Below, piece by piece: positions 1 through 36,454 of a stretch of DNA of 52,162 nucleotides; positions within the stretch are counted from its first letter, which is position 1; each line of letters opens with the position of its first letter. The stretch comes from Lachnospiraceae bacterium (GTDB lineage: Bacteria; Bacillota; Clostridia; Lachnospirales; Lachnospiraceae). The notes beneath the pieces were generated by a model, which saw only the letters and a list, made by a program, of their open reading frames with translations, was not told where the DNA came from and did not search any database. The translations under genes were made by a program, and so were the position numbers. The stretch covers positions 1-52,162 of the forward strand of contig JAKSRY010000015.1 in assembly GCA_024403415.1 (NCBI GenBank), in the 5' to 3' direction.

Positions 1-167
1 ACTGCTGATACTGCTGCTGTGCTCCATTTGTCTGATACTGTGCATTTGGATCCTGATACTGCTGTGCTCCATTTGCCTGATATTGCGGCTGATACTGCGC
101 ATTTGGATCCTGATACTGCTGCGTTCCATTTGCCTGATATTGCGGCTGATACTGCGCATTTGGATCC
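1..167. repeat. 57-bp in-frame tandem repeats
   Basis: GGATCC landmarks at 48, 105 and 162 show a 57-bp period, equal to 19 codons, inside the zinc-ribbon gene. One complete unit (105-161), one near-complete unit (48-104) and a degenerate partial unit (1-47) are visible, and the array continues past the window edge. Because the period is a multiple of three, copy-number change would alter linker length without a frameshift. Confidence 0.85.
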
Positions 168-295
168 TGATATGACTGATTATTCACACCGGCATTCTGA
201 TTGGCGTCAATTGTACCGGTAAACACCGGTGTTCCGCATACATCGCAAAACTTGCTGCCATCAGGTACCTGATTTCCACATTTTCCACAAAACAT
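1..295 (-). CDS. Zinc-ribbon protein with Gln/Tyr/Asn-rich repeats (partial)
   Basis: The reading frame starts at the ATG at 295 and runs off the window edge without a stop, so only the first 98 residues are visible. A strong ribosome binding site (AGGAGG, 303-308) precedes the start. The N-terminus is a zinc ribbon with two CxxC knuckles (CGKCG and CDVCG, residues 3-21). It is followed by 19-residue repeats rich in Gln, Tyr, Pro and Asn (QYQDPNAQYQ type), a low-complexity and probably disordered region. In this protein class such a linker commonly leads to transmembrane segments, but that part is outside the window. The zinc ribbon resembles those at 40867-42030 and 42289-43731. Function is unknown. 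Confidence 0.8.
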   Translation of the reverse strand, partial: MFCGKCGNQVPDGSKFCDVCGTPVFTGTIDANQNAGVNNQSYQDPNAQYQPQYQANGTQQYQDPNAQYQPQYQANGAQQYQDPNAQYQTNGAQQQYQQ

Positions 296-8965: not shown

Positions 8966-10033
8966 ATGAATTCATCTGACAGAGCAATACTTACAGATTT
9001 TAAGATAAAGAGAAATACATATCTCGAACTTGAAGACATTGTATATAATAAAATTTCCAGAATCATCAAGGATAACAATATTTTTGTAATGGAAATTTCG
9101 CACAGAACAAAAGAAGTCAATTCACTCGAAGGAAAGCTTCACAGAAAATCAGGCAAGTATAAATCAATATACGACATTACTGATCTGGTAGGCATAAGAA
9201 TAATATGCTACTTTTCCGATACAATCGATGCTATTTCAAAGGAAATTGAGAAAGCCTTTGTTGTAGACCTTGATAATTCAGTTGACAAACGAAAAACCCT
9301 CGGAATCTCGGAATTCGGGTATATTTCCGTGCACTATATATGCTCGCTTTTTGAAGAAGACTGTCCCAATGATAATTTCAAGGATATCAAATTCGAATTT
9401 CAGTTAAGATCTGTTCTTCAACATGCCTGGGCAGAAATCGAACATGATCTTGGATATAAAACTTCCTATGGAATACCTCAGGCAATACGAAGAGATTTTT
9501 CGAGAGTTGCCGGTCTTTTAGAAATCGCAGACAGAGAGTTCCTTGAATTAAGAAACAGCGTCCATGCCTATGAAGACATGGTTAATACAAAAATCACCAC
9601 AAATAATGGCGATGACATCTCTCTTGACAGAGTTTCACTCAATTCATATATCCATCTCAATACAGACTTTAATAAATTTGTTGAGAGGCTTAAAACTGAG
9701 TTGTCTGTTACTATTGAATTTATCAATCCGGATTCTTACCTTGAACAGTTCGCATTCTTTGGTATTGAGACAATTGGCGACCTGTGTAAGATGTTTGAAG
9801 ATAACAAAGAGTTATTGTATAAGATAATACATAATCAAATTGCTTCGTATGAACTTGATATAATGACGTCAAATATGATTTTACGATATCTTTGTCGTGC
9901 TGAGCTTATCAACAAGGGTTATTCCAAGCCTCTAATTGAGCGTTTCCTTGGCATTACCACTGCTGACCAGGCTAAGATTGCAAGAAGAACAGAGCAGATT
10001 CTCGCCGTAATTAACGAGAATCTTTCTGAATAA
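8966..10033 (+). CDS. RelA/SpoT-domain (p)ppGpp synthetase-like protein
   Basis: A 355-residue protein whose first 200 residues are a RelA/SpoT nucleotidyltransferase domain. SGKYKSIYDITDLVGIRI near residues 63-80, FGYISVHY near 115 and EFQLRSVLQHAWAEIEHD near 145-162 correspond to the conserved substrate-binding and catalytic segments. The N-terminal HD hydrolase and the C-terminal TGS/ACT domains of long Rel are absent, so it resembles small alarmone synthetases but carries about 150 extra, mostly helical C-terminal residues. It probably makes (p)ppGpp or a related alarmone from ATP and GTP/GDP. The ATG at 8966 follows CCGGAGG. It is a single-gene unit. Confidence 0.85.
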   Translation: MNSSDRAILTDFKIKRNTYLELEDIVYNKISRIIKDNNIFVMEISHRTKEVNSLEGKLHRKSGKYKSIYDITDLVGIRIICYFSDTIDAISKEIEKAFVVDLDNSVDKRKTLGISEFGYISVHYICSLFEEDCPNDNFKDIKFEFQLRSVLQHAWAEIEHDLGYKTSYGIPQAIRRDFSRVAGLLEIADREFLELRNSVHAYEDMVNTKITTNNGDDISLDRVSLNSYIHLNTDFNKFVERLKTELSVTIEFINPDSYLEQFAFFGIETIGDLCKMFEDNKELLYKIIHNQIASYELDIMTSNMILRYLCRAELINKGYSKPLIERFLGITTADQAKIARRTEQILAVINENLSE

Positions 10034-33633: not shown

Positions 33634-33661
33634 CCGGTCACTGTGTCAGACCGCTTCTCCT

Positions 33662-33780
33662 TTCAATATTTGTTTAAGTTCAATATTTGTCTAATTTCAA
33701 TATTGTTTTAGTTTCAATATTTGTTTAGTTTCAATATTGGTTTAGTTTCAGAATTTGATTTACTTCAGTTTCAAATTTCG
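33662..33780. repeat. Seven 17-bp tandem repeats in a divergent promoter region
   Basis: Seven consecutive 17-bp units begin TTCA. The first five follow TTCAATATTTGTTTAGT closely and the last two are degenerate. They fill half of the 244-bp region between the divergent ECF S-component and MocR genes. No other gene is visible there. Their position suggests an iteron-like regulator-binding array. Confidence 0.85.
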
Positions 33781-33877: not shown

Positions 33878-34957
33878 ATGAATTATTCCGTTGATACTGA
33901 TTTGAAGACACCGGCATATTTACAAATATATGAGCAGTTGCGAGAAGACATTATTAATGGCACCTACACTTATGGAAGCAAAATTCCTTCAAAGCGACTG
34001 CTGTCACTTGAAATTGGAGTAAGCGTTATTACCATAATGCACTCACTGGAGCTTTTATGTGATGAGGGCTACCTTGAGTCAAGACAAAGAAGTGGTTATT
34101 TCGTGATATTCAAAAAAGATGATTTTCTTGGTGCCCCCGTGCATACGGTAACACCATTGGAAAACGTGGAAAATTCTTTACGAAAAGGGGATTTTCCATA
34201 TTCTGTTTTGGCTAAGACAATAAGAAAGGTTCTTCTTGATTATTCTGATAAGATTCTTGTCAAATCTCCAAATTACGGATGCACTGAGCTTCGTGAAGAA
34301 ATTTCAGCATATCTTGCAAGAAGCCGTTCTATTTATGTAAAACCTTCTCAGATAATAATAGGCTCCGGAGCCGAATATCTTTATGGCCTTATCGCGCAGT
34401 TTTTCGGAGCCGGTACGAAATTTGCCATAGAATCACCATCCTATAGCAAAATACACCAGGTATACGATGCTTTTAATATTTCATATGATTCACTGACACT
34501 TTATCCGGATGGTCTGAGTTCTGATGATCTAAAAAACACCGGAGCAACCGTTCTTCACACTACTCCCTTCAACAGTTATCCGACAGGAGTTTCCATCAAC
34601 AGTTCAAAGAAGCACGAATATATACGTTGGGCAGTAAATCGTAATGGGTTCATAGTTGAAGATAATTATGATTCAGAACTTACTGTATCAAGCAAGCCCG
34701 AAGACTCACTGTTTTCAATTTCCGGTGGAGAGAATGTAATCTATCTGAATACCTTCTCCCAGACAATCGCACCTTCAATCAGAATCGGTTATATGATTCT
34801 TCCTGAAAGACTGCTGCCAGAGTTTGATCAAAAGCTTGGGTTCTATTCATGTACTGTTCCGCTATTTAGTCAGTATGTACTTACCGAACTTATTCATAAT
34901 GGAGATTTTGAAAGACACATTAACCGCATACGTAGAAAGAAGCGTAAACTGTCGTAA
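33878..34957 (+). CDS. MocR-type GntR regulator, short and lacking the PLP lysine
   Basis: A 359-residue regulator: N-terminal GntR winged helix (about residues 1-75, YLQIYEQLREDIINGTY and LESRQRSGYFV), then an aminotransferase-like domain (about 85-350) as in PdxR and GabR. The segment NTFSQTIAPSIRIGYM has Gln (codon CAG) where the family has the PLP-binding Lys (usually TFSKT). The EDNYDSE motif is kept. Typical MocR proteins are about 460 residues, and this one stops near HINRIRRKKRKLS without the C-terminal subdomain. An 89-bp gap then leads into the palindrome array. It probably regulates the divergent ECF gene but may not respond to PLP. It could be decaying. Confidence 0.8.
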   Translation: MNYSVDTDLKTPAYLQIYEQLREDIINGTYTYGSKIPSKRLLSLEIGVSVITIMHSLELLCDEGYLESRQRSGYFVIFKKDDFLGAPVHTVTPLENVENSLRKGDFPYSVLAKTIRKVLLDYSDKILVKSPNYGCTELREEISAYLARSRSIYVKPSQIIIGSGAEYLYGLIAQFFGAGTKFAIESPSYSKIHQVYDAFNISYDSLTLYPDGLSSDDLKNTGATVLHTTPFNSYPTGVSINSSKKHEYIRWAVNRNGFIVEDNYDSELTVSSKPEDSLFSISGGENVIYLNTFSQTIAPSIRIGYMILPERLLPEFDQKLGFYSCTVPLFSQYVLTELIHNGDFERHINRIRRKKRKLS

Positions 34958-35045: not shown

Positions 35046-35457
35046 TACCAGTGTAACTCAGATATGTAAATTCCACTGGTACTGAAAATGAAATGATTCA
35101 TGTTTTTTACCAGTGAGGTTCAGATATTCTATTTCCTACTGGTAATGAAAATGAGTGGTTTACTAATTATTACCAGTGAAATTCAGATATTCTATTTCCT
35201 ACTGGTAATGAAAATGAAATGATTTATGTTTTTTACCAGTGAGGTTCAGTTATTCTATTTCCTACTGGTAATGAAAACAAAAGAATTCTCAAAAAATACC
35301 AGTGAAATTCAAAAAACTGAATTTCGCTGGTATTTTTTCGTTTCCAACACTTCTTCTGTACCTGTAAAAATTCATAATCTTAGGTTTCACTGGTAAAATC
35401 ACGTTTCTAAAGAATCAACCGTACCAGTAGAAATTCAAAAAGCAAGATTCACTGGCA
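35046..35457. repeat. Seven-unit palindrome array with 62-63-bp period
   Basis: Palindromic units of 36-37 bp begin at 35046, 35108, 35171, 35234, 35297, 35359 and 35422, and all six spacers are exactly 26 bp. Units 1-4 begin TACCAGTG and end C/TACTGGTA. Unit 5 (35297-35332) is a 14-bp stem with one T-G pair and flanking A-run and T-run, so it can terminate transcription in both directions. Units 6 and 7 are degenerate. Spacers 1-4 are similar to each other (ATGAAAA-type). The array fills the 510-bp region between the MocR gene and the dehydrogenase gene, and has no cas genes. Confidence 0.9.
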
Positions 35458-35467
35458 AAATTGTCTA

Positions 35468-36454
35468 TCAATAGATTCTATTTTTAATCTCTTCTCCATC
35501 ACAATATCTTTTAAGATTTTCACATACGATATCGCACAGGATTTTTTCGGTCTCTTTGAAATGACCAAATGAAGCTCCCGAAGCATGCGGAGTAATCATG
35601 CACCTTGGATTCTCCCAGAGCGGATGGTCCTTCGGCAATGGTTCAGGACTTGTAACATCAAGAGCAGCCCCCCAGATTTTCCTATTATTTAAGGCATCAT
35701 TCAGTGCCATGCAGTCTATAAAATTACCGCGACCAACATTTACAATAACGGCACTTTCTTTCATAAGACCGATTTTAGTTCTATCCATATATCCAACAGT
35801 TGCCGCATTATTCGGAATACAGCATACTATTACGTCTGCTGATGGAATATATTTTTCAGCATTCTCAAGCGTACAAAGTTCATTAAAGTATGGTCTTTTT
35901 TTATCGACATTTCGGCATACACCTATGCAATAGGCATCAAAGCCCTGCAGTCTTTGGGCCACCGCCGTACCTATATCTCCGGCACCAAATATTAAAACTC
36001 TAGCATGGTCAAGCGATTGAACAGGCCCTCTTCTCTCCCATATCTTCGCTGTCTGCTGTCTGTGATAATCATTAAAATTGAGCATAACCGATAATGTCAT
36101 TCCAATAACAAATTGAGACATAATAAGTCCATATGCACCGCTTCCGTTTGCAAGCATAATCTGCTCGCTTGGGAATTTTTCTTCAACAGCAGTATACATG
36201 TCAGTTCCTGCCCAGACCATCTGAACAAATTTCAATTTGGGACAGTTCACTTCCGGCTCCAAAAGCAATGAAAGAGGAGGTGCACCAATTACTACTTCTG
36301 CGTCTTTAAGCTCTTCCTTAAGCGTCTTTTTATCTGTATTTCCATAAATATTTTTAATATAGAAATCATCAGTTACTGCAGCTTTCATCTTACTGATTTC
36401 AGGCTCGTCAAAAGCCTCTATCTGTATGATTTTTCTTTTATTTATTTCAGTCAT
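35468..36454 (-). CDS. D-2-hydroxyacid dehydrogenase family protein
   Basis: A 328-residue NAD(P)-dependent oxidoreductase that would interconvert 2-keto acids and D-2-hydroxy acids. The Rossmann motif LIFGAGDIGTAVA lies near residues 150-162. The catalytic Arg is in VNVGRGNFID (about 237), the Glu in PEPLPKDHPLW (about 272) and the His in TPHASG (about 290). Length matches the family. The ATG at 36454 has GGAGA upstream. It stands alone between the GH2 gene and the palindrome array, whose last unit ends ten bases from the stop. Substrate (for example hydroxypyruvate, glyoxylate or a branched keto acid) is not visible. Confidence 0.9.
   Translation of the reverse strand: MTEINKRKIIQIEAFDEPEISKMKAAVTDDFYIKNIYGNTDKKTLKEELKDAEVVIGAPPLSLLLEPEVNCPKLKFVQMVWAGTDMYTAVEEKFPSEQIMLANGSGAYGLIMSQFVIGMTLSVMLNFNDYHRQQTAKIWERRGPVQSLDHARVLIFGAGDIGTAVAQRLQGFDAYCIGVCRNVDKKRPYFNELCTLENAEKYIPSADVIVCCIPNNAATVGYMDRTKIGLMKESAVIVNVGRGNFIDCMALNDALNNRKIWGAALDVTSPEPLPKDHPLWENPRCMITPHASGASFGHFKETEKILCDIVCENLKRYCDGEEIKNRIY

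What the first reader, a model, noticed from the sequence alone, without database searches (positions are those of the whole stretch)
35046..35457. Seven palindromes spaced at 62-63 bp with uniform 26-bp spacers
Seven palindromic units of 36-37 bp repeat every 62 or 63 bp, and each of the six gaps is exactly 26 bp. 63 bp is six turns of B-DNA, so all units would face the same side of the helix. The spacers are not random: the first four share an ATGAAAA start. The central unit is a near-perfect terminator-like stem, and the last two units are degenerate, with the better arm on the other side, as if inverted. Strict spacing with diverged sequence suggests selection on geometry, for example for a DNA-organising protein, a structured RNA, or a recombination or replication-pausing site. 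I know of no described element with this exact form.
Basis: partly seen in the sequence, partly recalled or inferred. Interest (0 to 1): 0.75.

Follow-up and report, generated by a model that had tools for sequence, protein, structure and literature searches.

The report
Helix-phased arrays of paired DNA sites
Between its genes this bacterium carries about a dozen arrays of a short DNA word, written alternately forwards and backwards at a spacing of a whole number of turns of the double helix; some related species have arrays of the same design with other words, which suggests an undescribed DNA-binding system in which geometry matters more than sequence.

Summary
In detail: seven units of 36-37 bp lie at 35046-35457, and all six gaps are 26 bp. 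It is one of about 13 places in this genome (53 units counted on 12 contigs). They share the half-site wTTACCAGTrAAw, strictly alternating in strand. Of 40 spacers, 35 are 26 bp, although interiors and spacers differ between arrays. The arms do not covary, so it reads as double-stranded protein sites, not an RNA hairpin.

A same-genus species (G001) has 8 places of another motif (TGACCC): 36 of 36 pairs at gap 21-22, period 52. A third (G005) has periods 52-53, 63 and 73, with two poorly fitting steps of 85-86. Steps cluster on multiples of 10.5 bp (R 0.956). Near rplQ, glyA and roughly comEC, different species carry arrays of different motifs; other loci do not match. A PD-(D/E)XK-like gene adjoins an array in 4 of 4 standalone copies found, two of them fetched because of the array.

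Best reading: helically phased sites for a DNA-binding protein of fast-changing specificity. BIMEs are closest, but tag, hairpin and transposase tests fail. The protein is not identified; the structure job failed.

The parts
35046..35457 (.). whole array, 7 palindromic units = 14 alternating half-sites, 6 spacers of 26 bp
35046..35081 (.). unit 1 (36 bp) TACCAGT-N22-ACTGGTA
35108..35144 (.). unit 2 (37 bp)
35171..35207 (.). unit 3 (37 bp)
35234..35270 (.). unit 4 (37 bp)
35297..35332 (.). unit 5 (36 bp), one mismatch in right half-site (GCTGGTA); with flanking A6/T6 (35291-35338) a 21-pair stem, possibly doubling as a terminator for the convergent neighbours (inference)
   Evidence: terminator scan negative
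35359..35395 (.). unit 6 (37 bp), one mismatch in left half-site (TACCTGT)
35422..35457 (.). unit 7 (36 bp), one mismatch in right half-site (ACTGGCA)
33878..34957 (+). left neighbour: GntR-aminotransferase (MocR-type) gene, C-terminus missing; it ends 89 bp before the array
35468..36454 (-). right neighbour: D-2-hydroxyacid dehydrogenase gene, convergent, ends 11 bp after the array

Best explanation
The array is a string of double-stranded binding sites for a sequence-specific DNA-binding protein. SHOWN: the conserved element is an asymmetric ~12-14 bp half-site (wTTACCAGTrAAw). Half-sites alternate in strand, 29-30 bp apart inside a unit and 33 bp apart across the spacer (start to start), so units repeat every 62-63 bp. 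About 13 intergenic places in the genome carry such units. Two same-genus species use other motifs with the same alternating design at periods near 52.5, 63 and 73.5 bp, that is 5, 6 or 7 helical turns. Some loci are shared between species although the motif differs. INFERRED: one protein dimer binds each inverted pair, and neighbouring dimers sit on the same face of the helix and contact each other, forming a cooperative filament or folded nucleoprotein complex at a fixed chromosomal point. Changes of spacing are tolerated mainly in whole turns. The protein's specificity changes fast, and its sites within a genome follow by duplication and conversion. The partner protein is not identified. 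The best lead is a PD-(D/E)XK-like gene beside some arrays; what the complex does (anchor, insulator, homing target) is open.
For: Genome-wide layout: 53 units, 43 of 37 bp and 10 of 36; 35 of 40 spacers 26 bp, the rest 16, 16, 25, 27, 57. Units came from the list; nine of its rows were left out: eight isolated two-mismatch hits judged chance, and C3:73370. Of 42 everted pairs with gap 14-40, 30 have gap 26 and 34 lie in arrays; control 5 (recounted by hand). Motif logo of 106 half-sites: information is 0.41 bit or less left of -2 and 0.23 or less right of +11. No arm covariation: at arm positions 0-6 pairing equals shuffles; of 16 positions only position 8 has p below 0.05 (0.0225). Sister species G001: 36 of 36 GGGTCA/TGACCC everted pairs with gap 10-40 have gap 22 (34) or 21 (2), at 8 places on 7 contigs; control 1. 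Other motifs in the own genome at period 62-63: ATTGCCGG and TTAGTCT. G005: 63, 52-53, 73. RGIG5638: steps 74, 63, 73 in one array. Detector control: 0 clusters in 1.15 Mb of Markov-1 sequence. Shared loci: rplQ (G000, G001), glyA (G000, G005), comEC neighbourhood (G000, G001, G005).
Against: No binding protein has been shown. Some regularity may be inherited: C23 and C27 share a spacer, and G001 spacers are alike between places. The G005 steps of 85 and 86 do not fit 84, and the best-fitting pitch was 10.8 rather than 10.5. Step classes are few, chosen after the fact and not fully independent. Shared loci are few: 1 exact match each for G000-G001 and G000-G005, expected 0.045 and 0.017 with an assumed 2,500 gaps (P 0.044 and 0.017). 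G005 has no array downstream of rplQ. Around ispE none of the five other genomes has a detectable array in the flanks fetched, up to 1.5 kb each side, and between PilT and YifB neither G001 nor G005 has one. No array in 322 kb sampled from G002-G004 and only one short non-phased hairpin repeat in 306 kb of 20 other family genomes. Eight of nine other units folded as RNA reach z -2 or lower, so a role in RNA is not excluded.
Confidence: 0.6

Rival explanations
1. A new REP/BIME-like family: palindromic units spread by a Y1 (RAYT/TIRYT) transposase, regular only because arrays grow by tandem duplication.
For: [quoted passage not shown] G000 and four of the five other genus genomes carry a Y1_Tnp gene (5 of 6); for the two tested, G000 and G001, the best NCBIfam model is REP-associated tyrosine transposase, below its cut-off. 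Local duplications are visible (C35, copy offset 156 bp).
Against: No GTAG or CGTC tag at a fixed place (logo; tags as in PMC3733652 passages). Arms do not covary. Of seven Y1 loci four (G000, G001, G004, G005) have inverted repeats of their own of 13 to 29 bp, and none of the seven has an alternating pair of the array motifs beside it (gene ends of four loci were approximate).
Confidence: 0.2
2. Operator clusters of a MocR/GntR-type regulator: boxes spaced by whole helical turns, the left neighbour in the window being such a regulator.
For: PMC5320631 passages: MocR boxes lie one or several DNA turns apart, mostly with a TGT or TGG core, direct or inverted, 2-4 boxes; ACTGGTA holds TGG. The window array is beside a MocR-type gene; the TTAGTCT array of C35 is directly upstream of a gene that I read by eye as GntR-family.
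Against: Neighbours of other TACCAGT arrays look like unrelated genes such as rplQ, glyA and ispE (names by eye). Arrays reach 16 or more half-sites. Three places (C7, C76, C13:10802) lie between convergent genes. The window regulator is truncated.
Confidence: 0.12
3. RNA element: strings of hairpins in 3' or 5' untranslated regions acting in termination or mRNA stability.
For: Unit 5 is a near-perfect stem (z -10.1) and 8 of the 9 other units folded reach z -2.05 or lower; the window array sits between convergent genes.
Against: No compensatory change in the arms. Unit 6 does not fold (z 0.40). Arrays also sit between divergent and tandem genes. Whole-turn spacing has no evident meaning for RNA. 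Rfam: 0 matches in the window at gathering scores.
Confidence: 0.07

Closest known systems
REP/BIME (bacterial interspersed mosaic elements) with RAYT transposases
   Same: Intergenic, short motif in alternating orientation at regular spacing, species-specific sequence
   Different: Only a ~12-bp half-site is conserved, no hairpin constraint seen, no GTAG/CGTC tag, no cognate transposase flanked by the motif, spacing close to whole helical turns
TIRYT / TIRtron repeats (PMC3733652 and PMC6006769, passages and one section)
   Same: Y1 genes with a C-terminal HTH in G000 and G001 and with flanking inverted repeats in 4 of 7 loci
   Different: Those inverted repeats are not the array motif; G000/G001 arrays lack clear terminal inverted repeats
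MocR/GntR helically phased operators
   Same: Boxes separated by whole DNA turns, TGG core
   Different: 2-4 boxes per site there, up to 16 or more half-sites at unrelated loci here
CRISPR arrays
   Same: 36-37 bp repeat with 26 bp spacers, might fool a CRISPR finder (inference)
   Different: Repeat interiors vary and spacers resemble each other within several arrays
BOX and NIME mosaics (recalled; only a search listing seen)
   Same: Variable numbers of a core repeat between genes
   Different: No phased half-site geometry known to me

Membership tests
REP/BIME | regularly spaced motif in alternating orientation, intergenic | tested here: met
REP/BIME | unit is a conserved stem-loop | tested here: not met
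   in-unit pairing equals shuffled pairing at arm positions 0-6, 30 non-redundant units; many single units can still fold
REP/BIME | GTAG or CGTC tag at one end (definition from PMC3733652 passages) | tested here: not met
   logo of 106 half-sites shows no such tag from -13 to +17
REP/BIME | cognate RAYT gene flanked by the repeats | tested here: not met
   seven Y1 loci L266-L272: no alternating pair of the array motifs; own inverted repeats of 13-29 bp in 4 of 7. Second copies missing from the drafts cannot be excluded
REP/BIME | >100 copies per genome (usual, PMC2817692 abstract) | tested here: not met
   53 units counted in an assembly 87% complete
MITE / TIR element | terminal inverted repeats at array ends | tested here: not met
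   10 arrays with both flanks compared: 9 none at E 0.05, C23 one 21-bp 81% match (E 0.016) that overlaps half-site remnants; the RUG10816 array L061 does have 79-bp TIRs
CRISPR | near-identical repeats and unrelated spacers | tested here: not met
CRISPR | cas genes nearby | not tested
   flanks were not scanned for cas genes
MocR-TF operator | located in promoters of the regulator or its regulon | tested here: not met
   convergent, tandem and divergent gaps beside genes that look unrelated; the regulon itself is unknown
MocR-TF operator | bound by a MocR protein | not testable with these tools
   needs a binding assay
coding repeat | period a multiple of 3 kept in frame | tested here: not met
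   63 = 21 codons leaves frames open in C12, C23, C27, C29, but 36/37-bp units in C7, C77, C35 and periods 52, 53 and 73 break the frame

The most novel reading that the evidence does not exclude
A two-part system not yet described: a nuclease-type protein (standalone PD-(D/E)XK-like, ~265 aa, with a diverged N-terminal half) of fast-changing DNA specificity together with helically phased arrays of its sites. The arrays stay at the same chromosomal places over species while their motif is exchanged, as in a drive or homing system or a chromosome-anchoring system.
Probability: 0.2. Interest if true: 0.88.

Novelty: new variant of a known kind. Interest (0 to 1): 0.72.

Why it matters
A family of intergenic elements in which spacing in whole helical turns is kept while the recognised word changes between species, and even between arrays of one genome, would be a natural test of how nucleoprotein filaments constrain DNA, and a bacterial parallel to fast-changing DNA recognition elsewhere. 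It also bears on a practical problem: in this draft genome contigs C2, C3, C5, C6, C12 and C13 end inside or within a few dozen bases of such arrays, and CRISPR finders may misname them (inference).

Tried and rejected
Rejected: simple recent duplication of one terminator (12 contigs). Coding repeat (frame broken). CRISPR. Hairpin RNA as the conserved product. Rfam families (0 in the window). TIR-bounded mobile element for G000/G001. Y1 transposase as partner, made less likely by its own inverted repeats.

Led nowhere: viral contigs pattern scans; the 14 stretches were only run through the detector and the half-site listing; the four stretches were read by eye and judged coding or other operator clusters. 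From it I kept L061 and L058/L109 as real arrays and dropped the rest; L106 was judged coding by eye, and the Xenorhabdus and Fimbriimonas repeats were set aside as of another kind. The nuclease had no relative confirmed in viral contigs, only partial matches (36-49% of the query) in 4 plasmid records, no Pfam or NCBIfam family and no PDB sequence match of meaning. Its structure job failed, so no fold is claimed. My early rule that arrays start with a + and end with a - half-site failed at C23 and C76. In one search the contrast set wrongly held a 105-bp step from a G001 array; one search repeats it without that row (R 0.29 instead of 0.22).

Literature: searches of the held library (two returned nothing); none of the listed titles or abstract openings described such arrays. 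Papers seen: PMC2817692, PMC3733652, PMC6006769 and PMC5320631 in passages found by term, plus one section of PMC6006769; the others only in search listings.

Full report
OBSERVATION. The window holds seven units TACCAGT-N22/23-ACTGGTA at 35046-35457 with six spacers of exactly 26 bp, so unit starts are 62 or 63 bp apart. The array fills the gap between two convergent genes. Unit 5 with its flanks folds into 21 pairs; unit 6 does not fold. Gene names below such as rplQ, glyA, ispE, comEC, PilT and YifB are read by eye from the translated sequences; no family search was run on them.

THE SAME DESIGN THROUGHOUT THE GENOME. The window is contig C7 of a 2.71-Mb, 77-contig draft of 87% completeness. 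A pattern for the pair of half-sites finds arrays or single units at 13 places: C5, C6, C7, C12, C13 (two places), C23, C27, C29, C35, C59, C76 and C77; one more unit at the end of C3 probably continues into the start of C13. From the list I took 53 units and left out nine rows: eight isolated two-mismatch hits judged chance, and C3:73370. Of the 53, 43 are 37 bp and 10 are 36 bp; of 40 spacers 35 are 26 bp, two are 16, and 25, 27 and 57 occur once each. Everted pairs with gaps 14-40 number 42, 30 of them with gap 26; 34 lie in arrays and 8 are scattered, against 5 for the reversed control. The interior core (13 nt) is 0.372 identical between arrays against 0.327 when shuffled, so geometry is kept while sequence is nearly free. 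In C29 five units with interior identities of 0.30 to 0.70 keep exact 37+26 spacing.

WHAT IS CONSERVED. A logo of 106 half-sites (60 non-redundant) is wT-TACCAGT-rAAw, with information of 0.41 bit or less left of -2 and 0.23 or less right of +11. If the palindrome were kept as a hairpin, changes in one arm would be matched in the other. They are not: at arm positions 0 to 6 the in-unit match equals that of shuffled partners, and of 16 positions only position 8 has p below 0.05 (0.0225, 30 non-redundant units). The unit is therefore best read as a pair of protein half-sites in double-stranded DNA.

OTHER MOTIFS, SAME GRAMMAR. A detector of alternating exact 7-mers at constant period gave 0 clusters in 1.15 Mb of Markov-1 controls. 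In this genome it also found an ATTGCCGG array (C6 end; a related short one at the start of C2, seen by eye and measured, perhaps the same array across a contig gap) and a TTAGTCT array (C35:10019-10181), both at 62-63 bp. In 20 arbitrary stretches (399 kb) of the same genome it gave one weak hit and missed the short C2 array. With a degenerate pattern, four of the five other genomes of the genus have no TACCNGT array and G005 has one match judged chance. Of 397 family genomes only the own genome has them; two others have one match each, judged chance. But G001 has TGACCC arrays: 36 of 36 everted pairs with gaps 10-40 fall at gap 22 (34) or 21 (2), at 8 places on 7 contigs, some at contig ends and possibly halves of one array; control 1; period 52 with a few 50-53. 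G005 has GCAACAC (63), CACACGCC (52-53) and GTGTCG (73, with 86 and 85 once each) arrays. G002-G004 gave none in 322 kb, and 20 other family genomes gave one non-phased short hairpin repeat in 306 kb. Outside the genus, RUG10816 (L061) has steps of 73, 74 and 74 and RGIG5638 (L058) has 74, 63 and 73 within one array.

HELICAL QUANTISATION. Eight other alternating repeats reported by the detector give R 0.29, reached by 10,614 of 20,000 random sets (one search had wrongly added a ninth from a G001 array). The 53-bp variant at C13 against 63 elsewhere, and 63 against 73-74 inside one RGIG5638 array, differ by about one turn. This is the main evidence for selection on phase over mere inheritance of a period. 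The classes are few, chosen after the fact and partly related, and the 85-86 steps fit poorly.

SAME LOCI, DIFFERENT WORDS. Downstream of rplQ G000 has a TACCAGT array and G001 a TGACCC array. Downstream of glyA G000 has one TACCAGT unit and G005 a GCAACAC array. Around comEC, G000 (C3 end), G001 (C8 end) and G005 (C26/C27) each have an array within a few kb, not in exactly the same gap. Expected exact coincidences are 0.045 and 0.017 with an assumed 2,500 gaps, P 0.044 and 0.017. Counter-examples: G005 has no array downstream of rplQ but another inverted-repeat element; G004 and G002 could not be judged there (wrong side read, contig end) and G003 had no rplQ match. In the ispE loci of all five other genomes, up to 1.5 kb each side, the detector found nothing. 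Between PilT and YifB neither G001 nor G005 has an array.

A NUCLEASE-LIKE NEIGHBOUR. A ~265-aa protein with the pattern RSKSE...PDFTI...EHFG, which I read as PD-(D/E)XK-like from recall, has no Pfam or NCBIfam match. A profile of four copies, run over all DNA fetched by then (3.2 Mb with overlaps), finds four standalone copies and one domain in a larger protein. All four standalone copies adjoin an array: G000 C77 (array 66 bp before the gene start), G001 C36 (first GGGTCA at 9659, gene start at 9583), G000 C2 (ATTGCCGG-type array just upstream) and G005 C27 (array at the 3' side, resembling the array at the C26 start). Two of the four were fetched because of their arrays; the other two were arbitrary contig starts, and contig ends are enriched for arrays. 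At PilT-YifB both the array and the gene are absent from G001 and G005. This is a lead, not proof; most arrays have no such gene in the flanks examined.

TRANSPOSASE LINK. Five of six genus genomes have a Y1_Tnp gene, with an HTH match at the C-terminus in G000 (below cut-off) and G001, as in the TIRYT-like subclass 2.1 (PMC6006769 section). In G000, G001, G004 and G005 it has inverted repeats of its own, 13 to 29 bp, and no array motif pairs. PMC3733652 passages describe such TIRtrons.

MOBILITY. C23 and C27 share exactly one spacer's worth of sequence (26 bp) at their left ends; in C23 it follows a CCTGGTA half-site, in C27 unrelated DNA. So at least one pair of arrays is related by copying, with a break at a half-site edge. 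G001 C16 and C12 share 72 bp upstream at 82% (array edges set by eye).

ORGANISM. No name is given. The match in G030 contig C6 (23311-23393 of 90,469 bases) and that in the named Coprococcus catus record L094 have the same coordinates and contig length, so the family is very likely Lachnospiraceae (inference).

VERDICT. The observation and its geometric reading stand and extend to a class of elements. The mechanism preferred is cooperative binding of a sequence-specific protein on helically phased alternating sites; the protein and the purpose are unknown. In the library searched nothing listed described it. I file it as a new variant of BIME-like alternating intergenic arrays, not as a member of REP/BIME, because tag, hairpin and transposase tests failed.

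Noticed in passing
window 33878-34957: The MocR-type regulator is 359 aa and aligns to residues 8-370 of a 478-aa PLP-dependent aminotransferase family protein (7pq9), so about 108 C-terminal residues are missing; the array starts 89 bp after the gene ends.
   Followed up: partly
L061 1-~455: The RUG10816 array (period 73-74) is enclosed by 79-bp terminal inverted repeats, 90% identical, and the contig starts at the repeat: a MITE-like carrier of a phased array.
   Followed up: partly
L186 downstream of rplQ (G005): Where G000 and G001 have phased arrays, G005 shows a GGGGACGGGGTTAG inverted-repeat element resembling the repeats beside its Y1 transposase gene.
   Followed up: no
L165 7520-7682 (G000 C35:10019-10181): TTAGTCT/AGACTAA array directly upstream of a gene that looks GntR-family, same 62-63 bp period with another motif.
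   Followed up: partly
left flanks of the arrays at L162 5760 and L163 9166: The C23 and C27 arrays share 26 identical bases equal to one spacer, suggesting copying with a breakpoint at a half-site edge.
   Followed up: partly
G001 C8 end, C36 end, C12 end, C29 start: Several G001 arrays stop at contig ends with alike units, so some may be halves of one array; if C8 and C36 join, comEC, array and nuclease gene would be neighbours (inference).
   Followed up: no
window 32-172: 57-bp tandem repeat, 2.5 copies, 96% matches, near the contig start; not examined.
   Followed up: no
window 33661-33762: 17-bp tandem repeat TTTCAATATTTGTTTAG, about 6 copies, upstream of the MocR gene.
   Followed up: no
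L058 and L109: RGIG5638 also carries TTTACGGGC/GCCCGTAAA inverted pairs next to its TTTACTGGTAAA array, i.e. two motif families side by side.
   Followed up: no
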